Part shown: piece after piece, positions 7,413 to 47,200 of the stretch | Numbering within the stretch: position 1 is the first letter of the stretch | Layout: the number at the start of each line of letters is the position of its first letter | Assembly: GCA_030295235.1 (NCBI GenBank) | Contig: AP026126.1 | Location: 930,001-994,000, forward strand | From: Fistulifera solaris | Lineage: Eukaryota; Bacillariophyta; Bacillariophyceae; Naviculales; Stauroneidaceae | Length of the DNA stretch: 64,000 nucleotides | Direction of reading: 5' to 3' | Translations under genes and position numbers: made by a program | The notes under the pieces: generated by a model | Databases searched by the model: none | Told to the model about the DNA's origin: nothing | The model's input: only the letters and a program-made list of their open reading frames with translations

Positions 7413-7687
7413 GATGCATCAATTACCTGGTATGAAAGGTGCGCGAGAGAATACAAAGTAATGAGACTTTTTATCAAACAGTCAAACTTAAACGCCAAAA
7501 ACAGCCTTTGTCTGTACTCCATCCGAAGACGAACGCACACCAGACGGAAGTACAGGACAAACAACAAAACAACCAAAGCGATGACGATCTTGTTGTTACT
7601 ACTTGTAGTTTAAAACCAATCACTGACATTTACTTTCATTCTACATCCTTGTGCTTCACAGCTACTACTTGAAAATCCTGATCGAAG

Positions 7688-32587: not shown

Positions 32588-32878
32588 TCTTGATAAGTGT
32601 GTTGTACAAGCGATAAACAATGTTTGACAGTGGTGTTAAAGGAACGGGTGACTTTCCTTTAGAAAGAACTTTTGAATAGTTGGAAATTTCAATTTACGAC
32701 AAAAAATGTACAGAGTAAATGGTTTGTTTGATCTGCCGAAACGCAACAAAATAAGCGCGTTCCATGCGATGATGATTGTGTTGTCTCGGTTTCGAGAAGA
32801 AGAGGACAGACGTTCATGACATAAACGTTAGCCCTCGTGAGACATCCAATCAAAATCTAGGGGGTTAGACCCTGGTCA

Positions 32879-33177
32879 AAATTTAATTTCAAACGCGGAT
32901 TCCGCTTGTGTGATACAAACAGGCCTGGCTCGCAGCTGCATTCATCATTATTGAAAGTATCCCGATGCATAAACCGTGACATTCATTTGCGGGTCATGCG
33001 ATCCCAACATTTGAAGAAATCCGTTGCTTGGCACAAAAATACTTAAACAGCTCCCTCTAAGTGATTTTAAATTCAGTTTATGAGAACAAACTTACTTTTG
33101 ATTTACCGTAGGATAAGCATCGCAAAAATAATGTTTCCCTCATTTTTTGCTACATTCTTCTTCTTATCACATGTCCG
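32879..33177. repeat. Dispersed repeat, copy A
   Basis: About 300 bases align by eye with 37340-37632. Shared landmarks are AATTTCAAA, CAGGCC-GGCTCGC-GCTGC-TTCATCA, CGACATTCATT-like GACATTCATT, GGATCCCAAC-like GATCCCAAC, GAAATACTTA-like AAATACTTA and ACATTCTTCTTCTT. Substitutions and small gaps are spread throughout, so the copies are old. Ends and family are unknown, and no coding capacity is evident. Confidence 0.75.
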
Positions 33178-33300
33178 ACTATTGCAACATGTCCGACTAT
33201 TGCAACATGTCCGACTATTGCAACATGTCCGACTATTGCAACATGTCCGACTATTGCAACATGTCCGACTATTGCAACATGTCCGACTATTGCAACATGT
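33169..33300. repeat. 18-bp minisatellite, about 7 units
   Basis: The word CATGTCCGACTATTGCAA is repeated in perfect register seven times plus a partial unit. All units are identical by eye, so the array is recent. It begins exactly where dispersed repeat copy A ends in CACATGTCC, the position that reads CACATCTCC in copy B. This suggests growth from sequence inside the repeat. There are no spacers. Confidence 0.9.
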
Positions 33301-33468
33301 GAAAACATTTATTTCCGAGATTTTTGGGCACGTGTGAAAACACCAAATTCCTAGATTTTCTGGGGACGCAGGAGAACATTATATGCCCAGATTTTCTGGG
33401 GGGATTTTCTGGTCACGCGTGAAAACACGAAATTCCCAGATTTTCTGGGGACGTAGGAAGTCACAACA
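33299..33468. repeat. CAGATTTTCTG-type repeat cluster, locus 2
   Basis: The unit has the form GTGAAAACAC-AAATTCC-AGATTTTCTGGGG-ACG and occurs three to four times with spacing of about 40-75 bases (cores near 33353, 33390 and 33438). It follows the minisatellite directly. The same core with the flank GTGAAAACA recurs at 63.6-63.9 kb. Confidence 0.75.
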
Positions 33469-34121
33469 CTCTTACATTATTATCTTTGGTCCTTGATGTT
33501 TCTTGTCGTTATGCAGTTGTCGTTCACTTTTTGTGGATGAACGATGAATGATCATCTTCTTGACAAATATTATCAAGTGTATTGTATCCTTGCTGATAGC
33601 ACTGACTCAATGTCAACGTTCTAGCGACCGGCACTCGCCGTCACGAGTCGGTCTATCACAGTAATCGACGCTGAAAGTATTCACAAGCAAATATAGCGTT
33701 TACGAAAAAAAGATGAAAACAAAAAATAAATTATACTCGCACTTCAGTAGATCACGGCCTTACTAGCTTCACTCGACCGCGTCGCCATGTCGTTAGCCTT
33801 TCTTCCCCTGTCATCCGAGTTTCCATATTCAACTTCTATGAAAGGGACAATAGCTTCCTTGTTCAGTGTCTGATACTGTCTACTCACTCTCCCACTTTAG
33901 GTCGAAAATGTATGACCCAAATGGACTATGATGTCAGGTATTGCTGTCTGGAGCTTATCCACACTCGCCACGCCTCTAGAGTAGCTGGTATAACGCTATT
34001 GACACTCATGATAGCTAGAGCATTGGTGGGTGCTTGTGAAAGCATTGTGCTATCTTCGACGCAACAATTTTGATATTTTGGACTTTGCAAGAAGAAAAGA
34101 GTCGATTGGTGTTTGTGTTGA

Positions 34122-34718
34122 GTGGCTTTGCTTCTGAGAACATTATGGAAATCGCTGTTTTATACGTACGGTTTGGTGGGGACGGCTTTGTTGATATCAT
34201 GGTGGATACTCGGTCAGGATGAACCCCCTTCATTGCTCCGTCAAGCCTGGAAAAGCAGTATTCGCGTCTCTTTTCGAACAAGCAATGACAAATGTCAAGA
34301 TGCTCCGTGGAAAGGGATTCTTCATTCAAAGAAGTGTGGGAAGTGACACTTGCCCACTGTTCCAGAAATTGGGGTTTTTATACTTATTGATTGAGTACGT
34401 AACATCTCACGTCGTTGGGATAATTGGGTCCGGCCGCTGTTGTGGCGTCAATGGTTTGGCACATTCCGGAAGAAGCATGGCTGGTGCAAGCTGGCTTGGA
34501 CTGTGTTTTTGGTTTACATTCTTTCAATTTAGGTTGATTCGAAGCAGTGTTGCACGAAAAGGCCGGGCCGCCCAAAAGGGATGTTCGGAGTGTGAGTGAC
34601 GGGAGTGCTACTGGATGCAACAATTCAAATTGGGGCACCATCTTTGCCATCAACGCGCTCGTCAATTTAGTGGGAGCTGTCGCCCTTGTTTCTCTGTTAG
34701 CCAAGGAAAGAGTTTGAA
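34122..34718 (+). pseudogene. Remnant of a membrane-protein gene (uncertain)
   Basis: Three hydrophobic segments lie in order but in different frames: SLFYTYGLVGTALLISWWIL near 34149, KLAWTVFLVYIL near 34490 and AINALVNLVGAVALVSLLA near 34650. Between them is charged, coding-like sequence. Multiple frame changes and stops, with no recognisable family, suggest a decayed or misassembled gene. Ends are approximate, and it could be non-coding. Confidence 0.3.
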
Positions 34719-35546
34719 TAAGGTCGAGCTGATTATTGTTCGCATATTTGTCGAGCTTTCTTGGTCGAGTGATTGATTGACGTATTCCTCCTCTTCCTCG
34801 GTACTTGATACTTGGGGCTGAAGAAAAGAGTTGGCCTATTTCACCGGCTCAATCTTTTTGGACGAGGATGAGTGAGAATTCCACTCGTTCCAAGTTTTGA
34901 CTTCTCCAATCGATCTGCAGCAGGGTGTAGCCCCAATACAATTTGTAATTTCTGTTTTCGAAATAAAATGTATTCATTTACGCAAAGATTTATATAGTGT
35001 CTTAATACTAAACCGACTGTAAAGCCCACCACTTGGTATCATATAGATCGAATACGTTGGCTAGCATAAGCTAGAGCACTGGGAACTTTGCAAATCACGC
35101 CACAACTGATCGACGGATAACTCAATTGTTTCATCTCGAAAAGCACCCTTCATCGCATTATCATCAGATCATCAGATATGATTGCTTGTCGCGCAATCCT
35201 TTTGACCGGAACTTTCACAGAATGAATGAGAATACCTCGTCAATCAGCGATACAATCTTGCACAGATCTTGCGTTTCTCATTGTGCTCTGCGATTTCTCA
35301 AACAGTCTCAAGTCAAGTCATCTCGAAACGGAGACCGGTATCGATACCTTTCTTTTTTGTCCTCCAGAGCCATCCAAAATGGAATTCCCACGCGTCACTG
35401 ACCCACCATTCATCGCATGCTAGATAGCTTGCATTTATCTATGTCTCTCGTCGCGCAAATTCGCCATCCGAAGGCACAAACAGCGCAGTGACTCGATCTC
35501 CCACTGAAAACTGTTTCATCGAATGCCTCCTTGAATGACGATGATT

Positions 35547-35637
35547 CGATTCTTCCACGAAGTTCCTGACCAAGTACAAACTAAAAACATCTTGTTTCCT
35601 ACATCATCGTCATGTCTTTTCCGTCAATGCCAATCGG
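35547..35637. repeat. Duplicated segment, copy 1
   Basis: About 90 bases match 36717-36808: CACGAAGTTC-TGACCA-GTACAAA, CATCTTG, ATGTCTTTTCC-TCAATGCCAATCGG. Both copies preserve ATG-TCT-TTT-CC-TCA-ATG-CCA-ATC-GG, coding MSFPSMPIG. An open stretch of 60 codons follows in copy 1 (NEADMDSSKALLSNIPNRS). It may be a fragment of a former gene family. Confidence 0.6.
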
Positions 35638-36716
35638 ATTAAATGAAGCGGACATGGATTCGTCGAAAGCTTTGTTAAGTAATATTCCCAATAGGTCGCT
35701 TTCGGTTTGTTGACCGTTTCGCAAGACAGACCCAATGCTAGAGGAAAGAAAGCGATCTGTCATCAGGTAGAAGGCCGGACTAAGACGAAAACATCTGGTT
35801 TCGTATCGTTCGAACACTTGCTGAAGACGGACCGTTCAAGTCCAGAGCCCACGCCAGTGTATTTCGATCCCAGCAACCAGCTTCATTGCCAAGTCGAGTG
35901 CGTCGTTCAACAGATCAATTGCTTCAATTTTGTTGCCCCTGCCATCATGACACTAGAAAGCCTCACTCCGGCCGGGCTCCAAATATAGCTATCGATTCAC
36001 CTTATTGTAGTTTTCATTGGTGCTTCACAGCGCGATAGGGCGGTCGTAAATCGACACCCTCACGACGCCGCTTGAACGAACTAAAGCCATGTATTTGGCG
36101 ACACTGCCCAAAGTTTCCAAACCAGGTTGCTCCAAATTAAAGCATGCCGTTGTGCTTTCGATGACAATCCATCTGCTTTTACTCTAGTCGCATAAATATG
36201 CAATGAACGTTCGCCAAAGCAAAGAAAGCACCGCGAAGAACGGCGGACAATCCAACGACTCCTAGACTTTTCAGTGGCGTCATGGTTGTTTTATTGCGCT
36301 ACCTTTATGGCGTATTATTCACAGCCGATATGGCTACCGTATTCTCCGTCGATGAATTTCTGACGAAATCATCGAATTGCAGTTTGATTGTCGTGCGAAT
36401 GGATGATTGTTTCGACTGAGATCAACACTTGAGTGGCACAATTGTACAAGACGACTTGTACCGATACCAACTTCGTGGGTCAGATCTTTCATGGTCCGTA
36501 CATGAATGTTTTTTGTCAAGGCGGAGGATGCATTCTAGAAGCGGAATTGTTTTGGTTTCAACTATCAAAGTGGTGATGATTCGTCCTGCGAACCTTGATG
36601 GAACAAATTGTCATACACTGGATCCTTCATTGTAATCGGATCTTACAAAACGAAAATGCGCATAGAAATTCCTCTAAGTGGATTGTTGTAATGAATAAGA
36701 CCTCAAGATGCTCCGT

Positions 36717-36808
36717 TCGATTATTGTACACCCACGAAGTTCATGACCAGGTACAAAAAGCCATCTTGATTCTCATAATCGTATGTCTTTTCCATCAATG
36801 CCAATCGG
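36717..36808. repeat. Duplicated segment, copy 2
   Basis: This is the partner of 35547-35637, about 1.17 kb away in direct orientation, with roughly four-fifths identity by eye. Here MSFPSMPIG continues SKYSDHHDVLNNAIE before a stop. No intact gene is associated. Confidence 0.6.
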
Positions 36809-37339
36809 TTCGAAATACTCCGATCACCATGACGTCCTAAACAACGCTATCGAATGATTGAGGCGTAGCGTTAACGTCCTCCGAATTCTCGATGCAAAGT
36901 AAACAGCAGCTTCCATCGTTCGATGATTGAGAAATGTTGGGGCACACCTGTCTCCCGAATCACTAATTGTTATGATCATCAATCAAAAGCGAATGGCGAG
37001 AGTATGCGAAATGCGAAATGCGAAATGCGACCTTCTCTCTCTCTCTACAAAGTCTACAAAGTATATATTAGTATTATTAGCTTGATCTGAATGCAAAATG
37101 TGTGTGTGGCTTGTTTATTTATTTGTGGATCTCGTCATCTTCGACTTCGACAGGGTTACGCAGACACGTACACGCAGACTAGCTACATATTGAAGGATTG
37201 CGCTTGAAATAACAAGACTGAAAAGCAAAGCACGAACGCGTCAAACAAAAATCGTCGTCTCACTCTCATCCATCATCATCGTCGAGGCAAACAAAAGTGC
37301 CCCCAATGTGGACTTGACCTCCATTCTTTTCCCCTTCTT

Positions 37340-37632
37340 AAAATTGAATTTCAAAAATACGAGCAGGCCGGGCTCGCGGCTGCGTTCATCAATATTGGAA
37401 AATATTAGGAGGCGTATATCGCGACATTCATTCGTGGAACGTGGGATCCCAACCAATACATGGAGAAAACCGTTGCTCGAGACAGAAATACTTAGATAGC
37501 TTCCTCTAAATAATTTTAAAATGAGTTTGTGAACACAAACTGATTTTGATTTTACGATAGGAGAAGCGGAGAAGCATCGCCAAACATCTTTCTCTCTTTT
37601 TTCGCTGCATTCTTCTTCTTCTCACATCTCCT
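37340..37632. repeat. Dispersed repeat, copy B
   Basis: This is the second copy of the 300-base repeat at 32879-33177, same orientation, 4.5 kb apart. It lacks the minisatellite. The sequence after it (37680-37960) has an open frame of 93 codons without recognisable domains. Confidence 0.75.
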
Positions 37633-38480
37633 CTCAAAGGCGACTGAGAGAGGTTTGATGTCCTCCCCGTATTCAGTTGTTGCCAAAGCTGTGGCCTGCG
37701 ATCACAGCTTGGGACCGTATGGTTGAATACATAGTGGGAGCGCATGAAGGGTTGTGGTGCGTATGTCCCGAGGAAGGAGGAGTCGTCTCGCAAAACGGCA
37801 ACCTCGTGTCGTCTCTAGACGATTCGCTTGCCTGCTTGCGAGACTTCCTGCCTTACCGGAAAACACGCAGTTGGAGCATTGTGCTGGGAAAAGTTCTTCA
37901 CCTGAGTTGTGGGATCCATGAGGCGTGCCGAAGAACTGTGTGCGCCAGTGATTGGTGAAGCAATGGTAACGGTTGAGCGGGGTTTGGGGTTCACCCGCTG
38001 AGCAGCTTATGAAAGCCACATTCGCCTTTCCGCTCCCAACCGGATACATGGGCGTTTGTGATCGCTTGTTGACATCTGCTTAACGTCTTCGGAGCTCTTG
38101 CGGTGCTTATGAGTTATCCTAGAAATAGGTTAGCGGTTACGGGCACTAGCAAGGGTCCCCCATATGTCTCAGCACAATGAAAAATTGACCACAACGCCTA
38201 CATGCTAACACTTGTTCATTTCAAAACCAAGTAATTTTAATTAATATAGAAATACAACTGATGGATGCGCGCGACGGGTAATGGTGACAGAGGAGCTCCT
38301 CCATCTAACACTGTCCAATTTTGTGCGCTCAAGCCGTTTCGTGGTCGTGAGACTTGTTGTTTGCTCATATTCGCCTCTTGTTGCGTCGTGCTTTATCTAG
38401 GATTTATTTTATTTTCGTTCCAAGAAGTCTTCAGGTTCGTCATTAAAGTACGAAACGGGCGAGAGCCGGTCCAACAGTCC

Positions 38481-38782
38481 TATCACCAACAACGGCTAGA
38501 CTTCGAAATCAAATGACAAACCAAAGCGTTCAATACGTCACCAAACATGTTTGTAAAGTCCGCAACAGACCCATTGTGAACAATTTAGAAGCACTATTTG
38601 GTTTCTTTGAGCTTCACGGTTGAATGGAACTTGTCTCTTTCTCTCGCGCCGCGTTTCGATGTCGCTCTCGAACCGATAAACGGGCACTCGGCTAGGCCGC
38701 CATCCAATTGGAATAAAACCCTTAAGCGTAAACAACATCTTGGGGAAATGGGGCTCTCCCGAGAGACGTCGTGACACATTCA
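38481..38782 (+). pseudogene. Fossil fragment of the CCCH zinc-finger gene
   Basis: The sequence parallels 10187-10577 of the intact gene in the same order. Matching words include TATCACCAACAA, CGAAATCAAATG, TACGTCACC-A-CATGTT, GCTCTCGAAC-GATA, GGGCA-TC, CCA-CTGGAAT-like CCAATTGGAATA, ACCCTTA-GTAAACA and TGACTCATTC-like TGACACATTC. About 90 bases of the middle are missing and stops are present in every frame. Neither the fingers nor the C-terminal half are preserved, so it is a dead partial duplicate. Confidence 0.75.
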
Positions 38783-40794
38783 AATTGCACCACTCGGTCC
38801 GTTGCGAGACTTCGCTATCAAGGCCGGGAAAGCCCCATACCTCATGTTGGTTCAAATGCCAATTCGTGGAATCGCACGACGAGGAACTTTTGTTTGCATA
38901 TTCTAAACCAAAGGGTCTGATACCGGCTTCTTGGCTCGGGACTATGAGTTGCGCGTCCACGGTAAAAGCGTATCGGTGCTGATGATACGCAATATATTGG
39001 TAAACGAACCGAACAACCCAGAGCCCCACTTCCGATTTGGCATCTTCTAGAGGCTCTCTTTGCATAAAAATCGAATTCGTTTCACAAATGCTATGATGTA
39101 CCTGGTAAGAGAACAGGCAGATTGTAATTGCTCCAATGAACTGAGGATGTTATCAAATCTTTCCGCAACGAGTCGTCCATTTCAGAAATATGGTTGGCAT
39201 AACCGAGGAGAGGACAATGAAGCCAAGCAAAGCAGCTTCTGCGGGAAGTAGCTGCAGCCTTCCGGGATGAATCATTTAGGGCGAAGGATGCCCTAACGAT
39301 GACACTGGCAATGGTCTCATCGCGATCATTCTTGCGATTCAGCGCCCATGTGTTGAATATCAGCAACCATACGGAGTACAAGATAGGTAAAAAGAGAGCA
39401 CCAATTCGGACTTTTCGCAATAGAAAATTCAGCATCTTGAAACTGTTGAAGAATCCCAAATGAGCGTTGATTTGGTCTTTGTGTCCTTTTTGTACCGCAA
39501 TTGACCCCACAACAGCTCACCAGACTTTGAAGTTACTGAACGAGATCACGGGTTATAACAATCGGCATGTCAATCGTCGGACCTTCTTTTTTCCAGACCG
39601 TTCGCTTTGCGCGATAGCGAATCAGAGTGGATACGGTGTTTCCCCATGGAACTTGCCAAGTACATTCGAACTAAATTCTGTCACAAATAATGTTCCATGG
39701 CGTTGGTGGCGGTAATAAATATGACTGCCACCGCAGTGTAACGTTGTTTCGGCGATACAGTGTCAATTGTCACGGTACATTTTACAAACGCTCGATTCCC
39801 ATTACAGTACGATCGGTCCTTCCACAGTACCCTAAAAAATGATTGCAAAAGAGGCCAGGTTGGTAATGTGCGTCTACAAATGACCCCGGTGATTGAATTT
39901 GGCTTATTCAGCGTATCTAAAAGGTTGTTTGACGTCTTGGGTTGAATAAAATTGGCTTCTTCGAGTAGTCGAATGAGCGGATTGCGACGTCCAGTGCACG
40001 ATTTTGTTTGGACGTTTCGATGGGATGTTTCCAGCCCGTCGGATCAATGATTGACCCTTATGATGTTACGCTTCGACAGACGGTGCTTTGTACGACATAA
40101 TCTGCATCGTACGGTCCTTCAAAAAAATCAAAAACACCTGAGCGAGAGAGAGAGAGAGAGAGAAACGAGGATTTGACGGCGCGATATATGTACGAAAGGT
40201 CAACATCATTCTCTGCATCCTTTTTGAGTTCACTTTCGCACAAACATGACGAATGCACGAAAGTACTCCGTATCAAAGTTTTAAAAAAAGAAGGTTGGTG
40301 CAGAAATGCTTGTTATATAGTGACGAAAATGCGAATGTCGAATGACAAGTCAAACATCAACAAGAACAAAATGCGTCGTTTGTCTTTGTTATCTCAGTAT
40401 CAGTCATCCGCGATTTGCGATGTGTGGTGTGTGGTGACTTTCGGTCGTCGTGACTGAATCTGAAATGCAGTCGTGAAAAAGGTCGCTTACACTTTGGTCT
40501 ATAGTACGAGCGGAAAATATCATATTGTAAGACTTTTCGACGTAATGAGCCGAGGCCTGTATTACAAATGCTACTGCAACTGATATAAACAAAGTTAAGA
40601 GACAACAAATGCAGCTTACGAAATGAGCAGAAGAAAGGGAGGTTTAAAAGCAATCTGGCGTCTGAGAATTCAGGTTCATGACTGAAATGCAGTCTTGTGA
40701 AAGTCGATTCCAGACTCATCCGTCATCCGTCAGTGAGTCATCAGTCATCAGGGACAGGGTTATTCTAAAAGAACAACGATACGACGCTCAAATG

Positions 40795-41023
40795 TACGTG
40801 AAATTCACGTAGGCCCCGTAGGAATTTTATTAATTTAGGGAGGACACGGTACTTATCATCCATTCTCGGATCCGAAAGCGACAAAGTTGATTGTAACAAT
40901 TCTCAACATACCTTCATAGAGATAGAGACCATAAGCAAGAAGCGACATTGATTGGAACACCAAACATGAAAAAGACAACAGATGGAATGTTGCGAATTTC
41001 TACGTGAATTTCACGTAGGCCCC
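40795..41023. repeat. Two copies of a 17-bp palindrome followed by GGCCCC
   Basis: TACGTGAAATTCACGTA lies at 40795-40811 and TACGTGAATTTCACGTA at 41001-41017. Each is followed directly by GGCCCC, in direct orientation 206 bases apart. The second lies 35 bases before the ATG of the next gene. Each half carries the ACGT core used by bZIP factors. Confidence 0.75.
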
Positions 41024-41051: not shown

Positions 41052-42151
41052 ATGGGGCACCCGGAGATTACGCCGAGGCGCAACGCAAAAGATCCGGCGA
41101 CAAATAATAAGATTGCATTTCTCGTAAGCGCCATTTTCAAGAAGTTGCCTGGTTTACATTTTTTGCAGGAAAGTAATTTCATTATCATGAAGAAAGAACG
41201 AGATCCGAAGAAAACTTTATCGGCAGCCGCAAGTGCTTTACAATCGATTGCCAAACCAGCGGTTCAGTTTCTCACATTTGTGATTCCGCACGTCATCCTT
41301 TTATCGAAAGCGGCCTACAATTACTACGAAAGGCTACCTCAGAATGCGTTGCTTTTCATTTACGGATTTGTGATCTGCTTTTTCGGGGGGACTTTCCCGG
41401 TTCTTTTGCGGCTCTTCAAGCAGCGGAACACTCGGGAAGGAATGCTGTCGTGCTAGCCGTATCTGACTTGGCGAATGAAGCTATTGTGATCATCGAAGAG
41501 TCTAAAAAAGACGATGACAAGGACGAAGATAAAGATGGAAAAAGAGACGTGGATCAGATTTCCAACTCAGAATTCATAGCACGCAAAACGAAGCTTGTAT
41601 TAGCGAAAATGAACCCCGAAAAAGTTGACAATGCTATATCATCCATCTACAGAGTTTGGCTGGCCGTTGCTGCAGTCTTGATGATTGAGTTTGCTCAAAC
41701 TATTTCAATGGCCATGTCAATCTCTGACTTTCTGAAGAAACCAATTGATCGTTTCCTTGCGCCCACAGTACGAATGGCTGTCCCTGATCAGTATCACAAA
41801 TGGGTTCCAGTCGTTCTGGGTTGGACTGCAAAAGCCATCGCCATTGCAATCGCCTTTACCATCGACTCTGTTATATCCGGATTCGCATCAGCGCTCAAGG
41901 GTGGTCTTATGATGGCACAAGCTACCTATCAGTTTCTGGTTTTCCGTGATATCAAATTGGGTGGTCTTGTTAAATCCCCGGATCACAACGAGTCGAACTT
42001 GGACGAAGGATTATCGTATGTCTTTGCCGGGTTGGGATTCTTCTTTCAGCTCAGATTGGGTTTCTCGCTACCATTTCCGCTTAACTTTCTTCTATTCCCA
42101 TTTAGGTTTGCGGAGAACTGGATCAAATGGTCTCTTATCAAGAACTCCTAA
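41052..42151 (+). CDS. Unknown multi-pass membrane protein
   Basis: The family is not recognised. From MGHPEITPRR (41052) or MKKERDPKK (41187) the protein has hydrophobic segments VQFLTFVIPHVILLS, LLFIYGFVICFFGGTFPVLF, VWLAVAAVLMIEFAQTISMA, VVLGWTAKAIAIAIAFTIDS and YVFAGLGFFFQLRLGF. A Lys/Asp-rich loop DDDKDEDKDGKRD follows SDLANEAIVIIEES. One T is missing near 41403-41407, after GTFPVL, separating two clear coding halves. The 45 bases before GAAAGTAATTTC look like a possible tiny intron (GTAAGC to TTTGCAG), which would not change the frame. About 366 residues. Confidence 0.7.
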
Positions 42152-42248: not shown

Positions 42249-43878
42249 CTACGGTTTATAGTCAGAGGGCATCTCGCCGCAATCGGCAATGATAACGTCG
42301 ACATCGGGCTTATCGCTCGCACCCGTCTTCACATTCTCCATCTTGCGAACAATATCCAAACCCTCGACAACGTGGCCGAAAACAACATGCTTGCCATCAA
42401 GGTGTGGCGTGTCACGGCAAGTAATAAAGAATTGTGATCCGTTTGTGTTAGGTCCGGCTGCACTCAGAAGCAAAGCGGTGATTCGAAATATTGAATGGTT
42501 AGTTAAGTGCAAGCATTTTGATACAAAGCAATGACAATAAAGACTTACAGTTTGCCATCGACAAAAGACCTTCTTTTGTATGCTTGATGGAAAAGTTCTC
42601 ATCTTTCTGCACAGCTGGTAATGCTGCCTCTCCACCGGTTCCGTCGCCATTTGTAAAATCTCCTCTGTGGACGGGTACAACACGACGCTGGTGAGCAAAC
42701 GGACGGAAAAAGAAACAATGCTTGGTCAGATGCATGCGTAACGTACCCTTGCAACATGAAGTCTTTGATGATTCGATGAAATGTGCACCCTTTGTAATGA
42801 AGAGGTTTTCCCATTTTGCCTTCTCCCTTCTCTCCGGTACACAACAAACGGAAGTTTTCGGCCGTCGTTGGCGTGATATCCTTATAGAGCTGCATAACGA
42901 TGCGACCCAGGTCCTCGTCACCGTGCTTGATTTGAAAGTACACATGGGGATTATCGCCTTTCGCATTTGGCACAATCAGGCCTTTTTGTCTCCGTACATA
43001 TCCACTTTGCCCAAAAAACCTCCAAACGCCGCTTTCTCTCTCTTTTTGTTTTCAACAATAGCTTCTTTCAGCTGCGCCAACGCCTTGCGAATGTCCTTGC
43101 TATTCTCATCGACTTCATAAGCCGCCATCAAATCTGCCTTAGCTTCCTTCAACAGCCCCATGTTCATACGAGCCAAGCCACGACGGTAAAGAGCTTTCAC
43201 ATTCTTGGCTTCCGAGTCGATTTCCAGCACCGAGCTACTCGCTCGGACTGCTTCGGGCCAATCCTTGGTCTTGATGTAGCACATGGCCGCATTCGACCAG
43301 CAGCTGACATACAATTCTCGCTCCTCTTCCGGCACGGCATTACCCGATATCCCCTCATCTACCGAATAATTAGCAGCATCCTCGTATTTGCTGACAGCCT
43401 CCGAGAATTTCTTTTGTTGAAACAAGTCGGTACCCTCCGTTTTGAGTTTTTTCGCTCGAACGAGTCGTTCTTCTGGAGTCATCTCCCACTTTTCTTTCTG
43501 TTTTTCGTTGAAGCCAAGTAATTCGACTTCGAAATGAAGAGTTGCATTGGGAGGGATCTTCGGTGGACTACCGCCATCGCCGTAACCGTACTCGGGCGTA
43601 ATTTCGAGCATCGCCTTTTCTCCGACTTTCATGGAAGCAAATCCTTCATCCCATCCTCTAATCACCATACCCTGACCAATTGTAAACTTGAACGGGACGC
43701 CTCGATCCAGACTGCTATCAAACTTGGATCCATCTTTGGCGAGAGTCCCCGTGTAGTGGGCCGTCACTTCGTAGCCTTCCGGGGGAGGTCCTTCGGCCGA
43801 TTCGGGGGCGGCTTGAAGGATTTTTTTCTTGACTCCTCCGTCTTGCTTTTTCGAGACATCAATCCACTCGTCGGACAT
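42249..43878 (-). CDS. Dual-family immunophilin: FKBP - TPR - cyclophilin (FCBP type)
   Basis: Exons are 42747-43878, 42549-42664 and 42249-42457. An FKBP prolyl isomerase domain comes first ([60 protein letters not shown]). It is followed by TPR helices ([40 protein letters not shown]) and a cyclophilin domain ([64 protein letters not shown]). A stop after MYGDKKA at 42976 precedes the cyclophilin frame by a few bases. One more A in that A5 run reads through as [16 protein letters not shown]. The usual loop SIYG after GGE reads AALPAVQK, same length. 485 residues. TPRs of this kind often bind Hsp90. Confidence 0.8.
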
Positions 43879-43984: not shown

Positions 43985-44276
43985 GGAAGACGAGCGAAAA
44001 TGCGGACGAATGCTTGAAAGGCTCGTTTGTCTGTGTCGCAGAGTACCCTGTACACGAATCCAAATGATACACGTGGAATAAATTAATGAGAAGAAAGCAA
44101 ACGTACGAATGACAAACCCTCTCTCTAGAGAGACAAAAAAATTGGTCGCGGCCATCAACGCGATAAACAGAGGTGCAACTCCCTGTTTGTAAACCATATT
44201 GCGTTCCATTTTTCTTTTGAAAACAATGAATGGATACGAACACCCTTTGTTAAATTGATGACATTTCTTCTGTCAA

Positions 44277-47200
44277 ATGAAACACTTTACAATTGTTTTG
44301 TTCTTGATGGCTCACCAATGCCGTTTCTTCAAACGAACGTCTCCTACGGTGGTGCTTGCATTTCGAGTCGGAATTTCGCCCAATCGAAACCGCTGCATTC
44401 GAACGGACAGCTTGAGAAGAACCTTTTCCCGCAATCAACTGCTTCCAATCTATACAATATCGAATACTATTTTACATAACCAGCTGTCAACCACAGCTGA
44501 TGATACAACACAACAACCTCCGTATTTAGTTGGCTTGAATCCGAGTCAGATCGAAGCCGTCACACAACCATCGCAAACCATCACACGGGTGATTGCGGGA
44601 CCCGGTTCAGGGAAAACGCGCGTATTGACATGTCGCATTGTTCATTTACTGCAACAAGATCCGCGAATACGCATTCTTGGAGTTACCTTTACGAAAAAAG
44701 CAGCAGGTGAAATGCAAAAACGTGTCGAAAGCTTACTAAGAGAACAAGATGCCATGCATCATGATCCCTACGGGGACATGAATAGTTTTTTAGTTCAAAC
44801 GGAAGATTCCACCGGCGACCCATCGTACAGTGCACCTCCGCGAGATTTACATCGAGTCTCCCTGGGCACATTTCATTCCATCTGTTCCAAAATTTTGCGA
44901 TGGAATGGTGCCTTGCTCTCCGGCCTGCCATCAGTGGCGTTTGACATGCAATATTCACAAAATGCAACACAACTTGATCAAAATTTTGCCATTATTGATC
45001 AATCGGATCAGGTCCGTATTATTCGGGAGTTGATGAACGCGAAAAAGGGGGACATCTCCGAGGAAATAAAACCCTTGGTTATTCTGACTGCCATTGCACA
45101 AATCAAGCAACAACTAGCACAAGGAGAGAATCCATTCGCATCAGGTGGTCGAAATAAGGACAAACCGCCCTCTTTTGTTTCCAAGCTGGCATTGGAATTC
45201 TATCCCAAGTATCGTGAAGAATTGCTTGCCACCAACTGTCTTGACTTCGATGATCTCATTTACATGACGAGAGAGTTGCTTATGGAGTATCCCCATATAC
45301 GAGCCCAGTTACATCAACGGTGGTCTCATATTCTTGTGGATGAGTTTCAAGATACCTCGCGTATTCAAATGGATTTGGTCAAGCTGCTCACGTCGGGCAG
45401 TCTTTTAGTCGTTGGGGATGCTGATCAATCAATTTACTCGTGGCGAGGCGCTCATGCTTCTAGCTTGATGGACTTTGAAGAAGAACTGGAAGGGCATCCA
45501 TCAGGGAAGATGAAGACAGTGTATCTGATGGAGAACTATCGAAGCACATCTAATATCGTCAAAGCTGCTCAGAAAGTAATATCTAGCTCTCAAGAAAGTA
45601 AATCAAAATCAGCAGCCGATAAGATACGACAGGAAATGAAACCTAAGCGTGGATCTGGTCCATCTCCTAGGGTAGTTGCATGTGCAGATGCTAAAGCAGA
45701 AGGTATGTGTTTTTATGTACATGACACCTATTGCAGTGGGACTTCATATCATTCTTATCCTTCACTTTAGCCGAATTTGTCGTTGATATTATCAAGGAGC
45801 GACTAAGGAGTGGAGATTGTGACTCGACGAAAGATGTGGCGTTGATTTACAGAACAAATGCTCAATCTCGTGCACTTGAAGAAGCGTGCGTCAAAGCGTC
45901 TTTGCCCTACGTCATTTTTGGTTCAGCCACCAGCTTCTACAAACGGCAAGAGATAAAGGATACACTTTGTTTTCTTCGTTGGATCAATAATGGGTATGAC
46001 AAATCGTCTATGCTTCGAGCAATGGTAACTCCCAAACGTGGGATTGGAGATGCTGCTTTGAATGAATTTGATGCTTTTTGCTCGGAATCGCAAATTCAAT
46101 GGAAGGACAAATCGACCGATCCAGGGCCCTCGCCCCTTGACGTTCTCCTTTCGCTGTCTGGGCCTACCAGGTTTGACGAAAAGATGTTTTTTGATCCGAC
46201 GGGTATCCTTTCAAGTCGGTCTTTGAAACCTTTGAGTGCGTTTTCGCAGCAAATTCGATCAATATGCGATGAAGCAAGGCGGAAACCGGTTGAAAAATTG
46301 CTTGCCATAATTGAATCTGAGCTCAAACTATTTGAGCACTTTGATAAGATATCCAAATCGAAAAGTGAGTTTTTGGAGCGAAAAGCAAATTTTGAAGAAT
46401 TGCAGAACGCAGCAAGAAAGTATACAGACGAAGGCCCTGCACTTGGCAAGCCTAACGGCGAAGCGAATGATAGTGAGCTTAGTACACCCCTGGGAAATTT
46501 TTTGGACGATGTTGCCCTCGTCACCGATGTTCTTGACGCTGCAAAGGACGGTGATAACGATTCTTTTGTTGTGAAGCTAATGACGATTCACGCGAGCAAA
46601 GGTATGGAGTTTGAAACCGTTTTTCTCGTCGGTAACGAAGACGGGACACTCCCCACCGCACAGGTAAGTTGACTGCATTACATAAGTTGCTCGTTTACGT
46701 TGCTAACCAGATTGTATCACAATCAGGCCATCTTAGAAGGCGAGGGCTCCGTGCAGCTGGAGGAAGAGAAGCGTCTCTGCTACGTAGCTATGACACGTGC
46801 CAAAACAGAGCTTCTGATGACTTGGAGAAAAGAGGTACCAATATTTACTAAAGAAGGGATACGCACAGTGAAGAAAACTAGAAGTCGATTTTTGGATGTT
46901 CTCGTCAAGAAGGCAGATTCCGAAGCAGTCAAAGGAGAAAAGGGGGAACGAAACAATGAGAAGAAAGCGACGGGGACATCGCATGTCTTTCAGAAGAAGT
47001 CGTCGGCTTCAGACCCAATTACACTGGGTCAGGGCCGCCGACAGTATTCGACGTTTCAGTCGGCACAAGCTAAATCGCGGCAGGCCCTGAATAGTAGCCA
47101 ACGAAGCAGAAAGTTGTACGACTTTGATTCCAGACTACCCTCTAGGAGACCAGCATCCACTGAACCATCTGCAGCTCGCAAAACTTCACATACAGTTACA

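What the first reader, a model, noticed from the sequence alone, without database searches (positions are those of the whole stretch)
42249..43878. FKBP-TPR-cyclophilin dual immunophilin in a diatom
The FKBP-TPR protein and the cyclophilin lie on the same strand with the FKBP stop only a few bases before the cyclophilin reading. There is no room for a promoter or UTR, and one homopolymer A makes them a single 485-residue protein. Dual-family immunophilins joining the FK506- and cyclosporin-binding folds are known from a few lineages (FCBP of Toxoplasma, CFBP of some bacteria). A diatom member with the same order as the apicomplexan type would be notable for drug response and Hsp90-linked folding.
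Basis: partly seen in the sequence, partly recalled or inferred. Interest (0 to 1): 0.75.

Follow-up and report, generated by a model that had tools for sequence, protein, structure and literature searches.

The report
Diatom FKBP-TPR-cyclophilin gene, known kind
This is a protein-folding helper gene that joins two kinds of drug-binding isomerase in one chain, a kind already reported from diatoms, and the break between its halves looks like a small sequence error in a run of A's.

Summary
On the minus strand, 43878-42249 encodes an FKBP domain, three TPRs and a complete three-exon cyclophilin. FKBP, TPR and cyclophilin models pass Pfam cut-offs. The two halves are one base out of frame at an A run just before TGA 42978-42976.

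The window lies on contig C6 of a 51.7 Mb genome with many paired contigs. The matching gene on C5 reads through the junction in one open frame, from the TPRs into cyclophilin exon 1. In the window the cyclophilin frame has no ATG upstream of its domain. Both halves are under strong purifying selection (dN/dS 0.04 and 0.06). Single-base gaps between the copies in long frames cluster at homopolymers (16 of 19, background 16%). A one-gene fusion broken by a homopolymer length error is therefore the best reading; a real mutation in this copy is the main rival.

It is not a new kind. FKBP-3TPR-cyclophilin proteins (FCBP) are in print from apicomplexans, ciliates, oomycetes, dinoflagellates and diatoms, with four diatom sequences in Barik 2018. 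This is a further, ordinary member.

The parts
42249..43878 (-). whole coding region of the FKBP-3TPR-cyclophilin gene, ATG to stop, introns included
   Evidence: homoeolog on C5
43516..43785 (-). FKBP_C domain (residues 32-121)
   Evidence: Pfam PF00254, 2.3e-34
43069..43473 (-). three-TPR region (about residues 136-270)
   Evidence: Pfam TPR_1 and TPR_2 over cut-off; alignment to the TPR part of FKBP51 and FKBP52
42983..42987 (-). A5 run where the FKBP-TPR frame and the cyclophilin frame differ by one base; the homoeolog has AAGAAA at this place
42976..42978 (-). TGA that ends the FKBP-TPR frame in this assembly; the homoeolog's frame has no stop here
42747..42982 (-). linker and cyclophilin coding part up to intron 1
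   Evidence: Pfam PF00160, 4e-14; dN/dS 0.038
42665..42746 (-). intron 1 (GT-AG, 82 nt), inferred from the reading frames
   Evidence: same borders in C5
42549..42664 (-). cyclophilin middle exon
   Evidence: no Pfam match for its frame alone
42458..42548 (-). intron 2 (GT-AG, 91 nt), inferred from the reading frames
   Evidence: same borders in C5
42252..42457 (-). cyclophilin last exon; stop TAG 42251-42249
   Evidence: Pfam PF00160, 1.3e-20

Best explanation
One nuclear gene of an allodiploid diatom (probably Fistulifera solaris, inferred) encodes a 485-residue dual-family immunophilin of the FCBP class: FKBP, three TPRs, cyclophilin. The TPR region probably docks on the C-terminal tail of Hsp90, as in FKBP51/52 and cyclophilin 40, and the two prolyl isomerase domains act on client proteins from either end. 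Shown here: domains, order, likely exon structure, conservation of both halves, and an open frame through the junction in the homoeolog. Inferred: that the window's frame break is an error in homopolymer length in this assembly, and the Hsp90 co-chaperone role. Isomerase and drug-binding activity are inferred from family.
For: Pfam domains in order on one strand. Match of the FKBP-TPR part to FKBP51 and FKBP52 over nearly its whole length, with the lysine, asparagine, lysine and arginine positions that I recall as the Hsp90 clamp identical in the printed alignments. Full cyclophilin domain, best match cyclophilin 40. The C5 homoeolog has an open frame of 281 codons across the junction and introns with the same borders. 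dN/dS 0.039 (FKBP-TPR, 298 codons) and 0.060 (cyclophilin, 184 codons) between homoeologs. The cyclophilin frame has no start upstream of its domain. One-base gaps between the homoeologs in long frames: 19 with clean flanks in 19,790 aligned bases, 16 of them near a run of 4 or more, background 15.7%.
Against: No reads or transcripts were available. The C5 copy differs from the window by three further single-base gaps in the FKBP-TPR part, so neither assembled copy is open from end to end. At least one of the 19 gaps (45708) lies in a likely intron. In a looser count, one-base gaps were rarer in frames of 200 codons or more (62 in 35,265 bases) than outside (121 in 15,957), and 49 of the 121 outside also lie near runs, so some such gaps are surely real evolutionary changes. 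Low dN/dS covers the time since the two parents diverged and would not reveal a recent loss in one copy.
Confidence: 0.86

Rival explanations
1. The frame difference is real: the window copy has lost its cyclophilin half by a recent one-base change, while the homoeolog keeps the full protein.
For: Allodiploids can tolerate loss of one copy (general knowledge). The TGA leaves an intact FKBP-TPR protein of 300 codons, a layout known from Plasmodium FKBP35 (recalled).
Against: One-base gaps near homopolymers recur in long frames between the two contigs, and three more fall in this same gene, where they break the C5 frame. The window's cyclophilin exons show no relaxed constraint.
Confidence: 0.11
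2. Programmed -1 ribosomal frameshifting at the A run makes both a short FKBP-TPR protein and the full fusion.
For: An A run followed by G just before a stop, and a one-base step back would enter the cyclophilin frame.
Against: The run is preceded by C, so it is not a canonical slippery heptamer (motif recalled). The run is not kept in the homoeolog, which reads through in the zero frame. The downstream RNA is no more structured than shuffles (z 0.46).
Confidence: 0.01
3. Two separate genes, FKBP-TPR and a free-standing cyclophilin.
For: The assembled sequence has a stop between them.
Against: No ATG in the cyclophilin frame before its domain; the first would cut off the start of the domain. 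No intergenic space. The homoeolog is one frame there.
Confidence: 0.02

Closest known systems
FCBP-class dual-family immunophilins (Toxoplasma gondii FCBP57; oomycete and diatom FCBPs)
   Same: FKBP, three TPRs, cyclophilin in that order in a single-celled eukaryote; diatom members already counted in print
   Different: No difference in layout seen. No published FCBP sequence was compared here, so identity to named members was not measured.
CFBP-class dual-family immunophilins of bacteria
   Same: joins the same two isomerase families
   Different: reverse order (cyclophilin first) and no TPR
FKBP51/FKBP52
   Same: FKBP domain and three TPRs; the second FKBP51 stretch aligns to 12-291 of the query
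   Different: they have two FKBP domains (two matched stretches) and no cyclophilin (recalled)
Cyclophilin 40
   Same: closest solved cyclophilin domain by sequence, same His at the cyclosporin-contact position; also a TPR co-chaperone (recalled)
   Different: cyclophilin is N-terminal there (residues 13-185 of 370 matched) and there is no FKBP domain (recalled)

Membership tests
FCBP (FKBP-3TPR-CYN) | N-terminal FKBP domain | tested here: met
   PF00254, 118 bits
FCBP (FKBP-3TPR-CYN) | three TPRs between the isomerase domains | tested here: met
   Alignment over the TPR region of FKBP51 and FKBP52. TPR_1 and TPR_2 pass their cut-offs with best stretches at 227-259; the first repeat rests on the alignment, not on Pfam.
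FCBP (FKBP-3TPR-CYN) | C-terminal cyclophilin domain | tested here: met
FCBP (FKBP-3TPR-CYN) | one polypeptide | tested here: inconclusive
   Window frames differ by one base. The homoeolog is open through the junction but has other single-base differences. No transcript tested.
FCBP (FKBP-3TPR-CYN) | isomerase activity inhibited by FK506 and cyclosporin | not testable with these tools
   Alignment only; His in place of Trp at the cyclosporin-contact position may weaken cyclosporin binding (role of the residue recalled)
CFBP (CYN-linker-FKBP) | cyclophilin before FKBP, no TPR | tested here: not met

The most novel reading that the evidence does not exclude
The two subgenomes of an allodiploid diatom have diverged so that one copy makes the full FCBP and the other a TPR-ending FKBP alone, giving a natural test of what the cyclophilin half adds.
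Probability: 0.08. Interest if true: 0.35.

Novelty: new member of a known kind. Interest (0 to 1): 0.14.

Why it matters
It adds a well-conserved, two-copy FCBP in a diatom and shows its likely exon structure. It also shows that frame breaks at homopolymers in this assembly should not be read as biology without checking the paired contig. The diatom FCBP could be used to test whether both drug sites work, given the His at the cyclosporin site.

Tried and rejected
Programmed frameshifting: rejected, since the run is not kept in the homoeolog and there is no excess RNA structure (z 0.46). Separate cyclophilin gene: rejected for want of a start codon. Relatives in viral contigs, searched with the FKBP-TPR part only: 3 stretches matched a pattern and 0 encoded a relative. 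The collections of bacterial genomes, phages and plasmids were not searched. Other places in the genome with both domains: of the 91 cyclophilin matches and 45 FKBP matches, lists that are lower bounds and that I compared by eye, only this gene and its C5 counterpart have the two within a few kilobases. The first count of frame switches between the contigs (33 and 24) was not used because it includes antisense frames and introns. The stricter count dropped 19 of 45 gaps for poor flanks, and the junction gap itself is not in that list because frame ends were trimmed. No structure prediction was run.

Full report
Observation. On the minus strand, 43878-42979 is an open frame of 300 codons with an FKBP domain (Pfam 2.3e-34) and TPRs (TPR_2 1e-09). 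It ends at TGA 42978-42976. A second frame, one base off and already open from 43051, carries the start of a cyclophilin domain (4e-14). With two GT-AG introns (42746-42665 and 42548-42458), placed by me from the frames, it gives a complete cyclophilin ending at TAG 42251-42249. The frame that holds the middle exon has no Pfam match by itself, but the spliced 186 residues match cyclophilin 40 over the whole domain.

Setting. The window is C6:930001-994000 of a genome of 51.7 Mb in 61 contigs, where many cyclophilin and FKBP matches come in pairs on neighbouring contig numbers. That fits an allodiploid diatom. Fistulifera solaris, described as allodiploid (PMC13276009, passages) with 42 pairs of homoeologous chromosomes (PMC5935921, passages), is the likely source, but this is inference from genome shape only.

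The homoeolog. The counterpart on C5 is 92% identical over the gene, with the same intron borders. Where the window reads GACAAAAAGGCC, C5 reads GACAAGAAAGAC. The C5 frame through the junction (near C5:1030861) is open for 281 codons. Its first few codons are out of register, because of a single-base difference in the first TPR, and its last ones run into intron 1; between them it reads from the TPRs straight into cyclophilin exon 1. So the joined reading exists in one copy without any adjustment at the junction. The C5 copy differs from the window by three more single-base gaps in the FKBP-TPR part, each at an A or C run, so neither assembled copy is open from end to end.

Error or biology? 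In long frames (300 codons or more in either contig, 19,790 aligned bases) there are 45 gaps, 26 with clean flanks. Of those 26, 19 are of one base, 5 of three and 2 of six. Of the 19, 16 lie near a run of four or more, against 15.7% of aligned positions. Relative to the other copy the base is absent in the window in 13 and in C5 in 6. Some of the 19 are not coding (45708 looks like an intron of the neighbouring helicase gene). A looser count (frames of 200 codons or more) gave 62 one-base gaps in 35,265 bases, 41 near runs, against 121 in 15,957 bases outside, 49 near runs. One-base gaps are thus rarer in frames than outside, as real evolution would also give, but those in frames sit at runs more often. 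I read the in-frame ones as mainly homopolymer length errors. Both halves of this gene are conserved alike: dN/dS 0.039 over 298 codons and 0.060 over 184 codons. The cyclophilin frame has no ATG before its domain; the first is 29 codons past 42982, inside the domain. A separate gene is therefore unlikely. A recent real loss in this copy cannot be excluded without reads.

What it does. The FKBP-TPR part aligns along FKBP51 and FKBP52. The lysine, asparagine, lysine and arginine that I recall as the Hsp90 tail clamp are the same in the printed alignments. The cyclophilin part is closest to cyclophilin 40 among solved structures (7.5e-67) and shares its His where the two other printed alignments have Trp, a cyclosporin contact (recalled). 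I infer an Hsp90-linked folding helper with two isomerase heads, with FK506 binding likely and cyclosporin binding perhaps weaker. None of this was assayed.

Known or new. Dual-family immunophilins of this order (FCBP) are reviewed in PMC6316441. I saw its abstract and outline, passages including Table 1 and its section 3 whole. Table 1 lists 44 FCBPs: 13 apicomplexan, 11 oomycete, 8 ciliate, 4 diatom, 2 dinoflagellate and 6 others; the running text says 40. PMC7168621 (passages) repeats the diatom occurrence and reports the arrangement in other stramenopiles and alveolates. PMC5852385 (passages) describes the two classes. The finding is thus an ordinary member of a known family, in a lineage where it was already known; whether this very sequence is one of the four diatom ones I could not tell.

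Noticed in passing
window 7425-7630 and 32670-40922, against C5: Two large size differences between the homoeologous contigs: about 8 kb present in C5 only near window 7.5 kb, and about 8 kb present in the window only at 32.7-40.9 kb. Possible insertions.
   Followed up: no
window 44262-46669 (+): UvrD-type helicase gene next to the FCBP, in two frames around 45.7 kb with likely intron borders there (Pfam UvrD-helicase 2.1e-68 and UvrD_C 2e-33).
   Followed up: partly
window 41177-42148 (+): Convergent open frame of 324 residues with no Pfam match, ending 97 bases from the FCBP stop; its last 256 residues are 96% identical in C5.
   Followed up: partly
window 42549-42664 (-): In the cyclophilin, the stretch after GTGGE reads [12 protein letters not shown] where cyclophilin 40 has SIYGEKFEDENF; the same in both homoeologs.
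   Followed up: no
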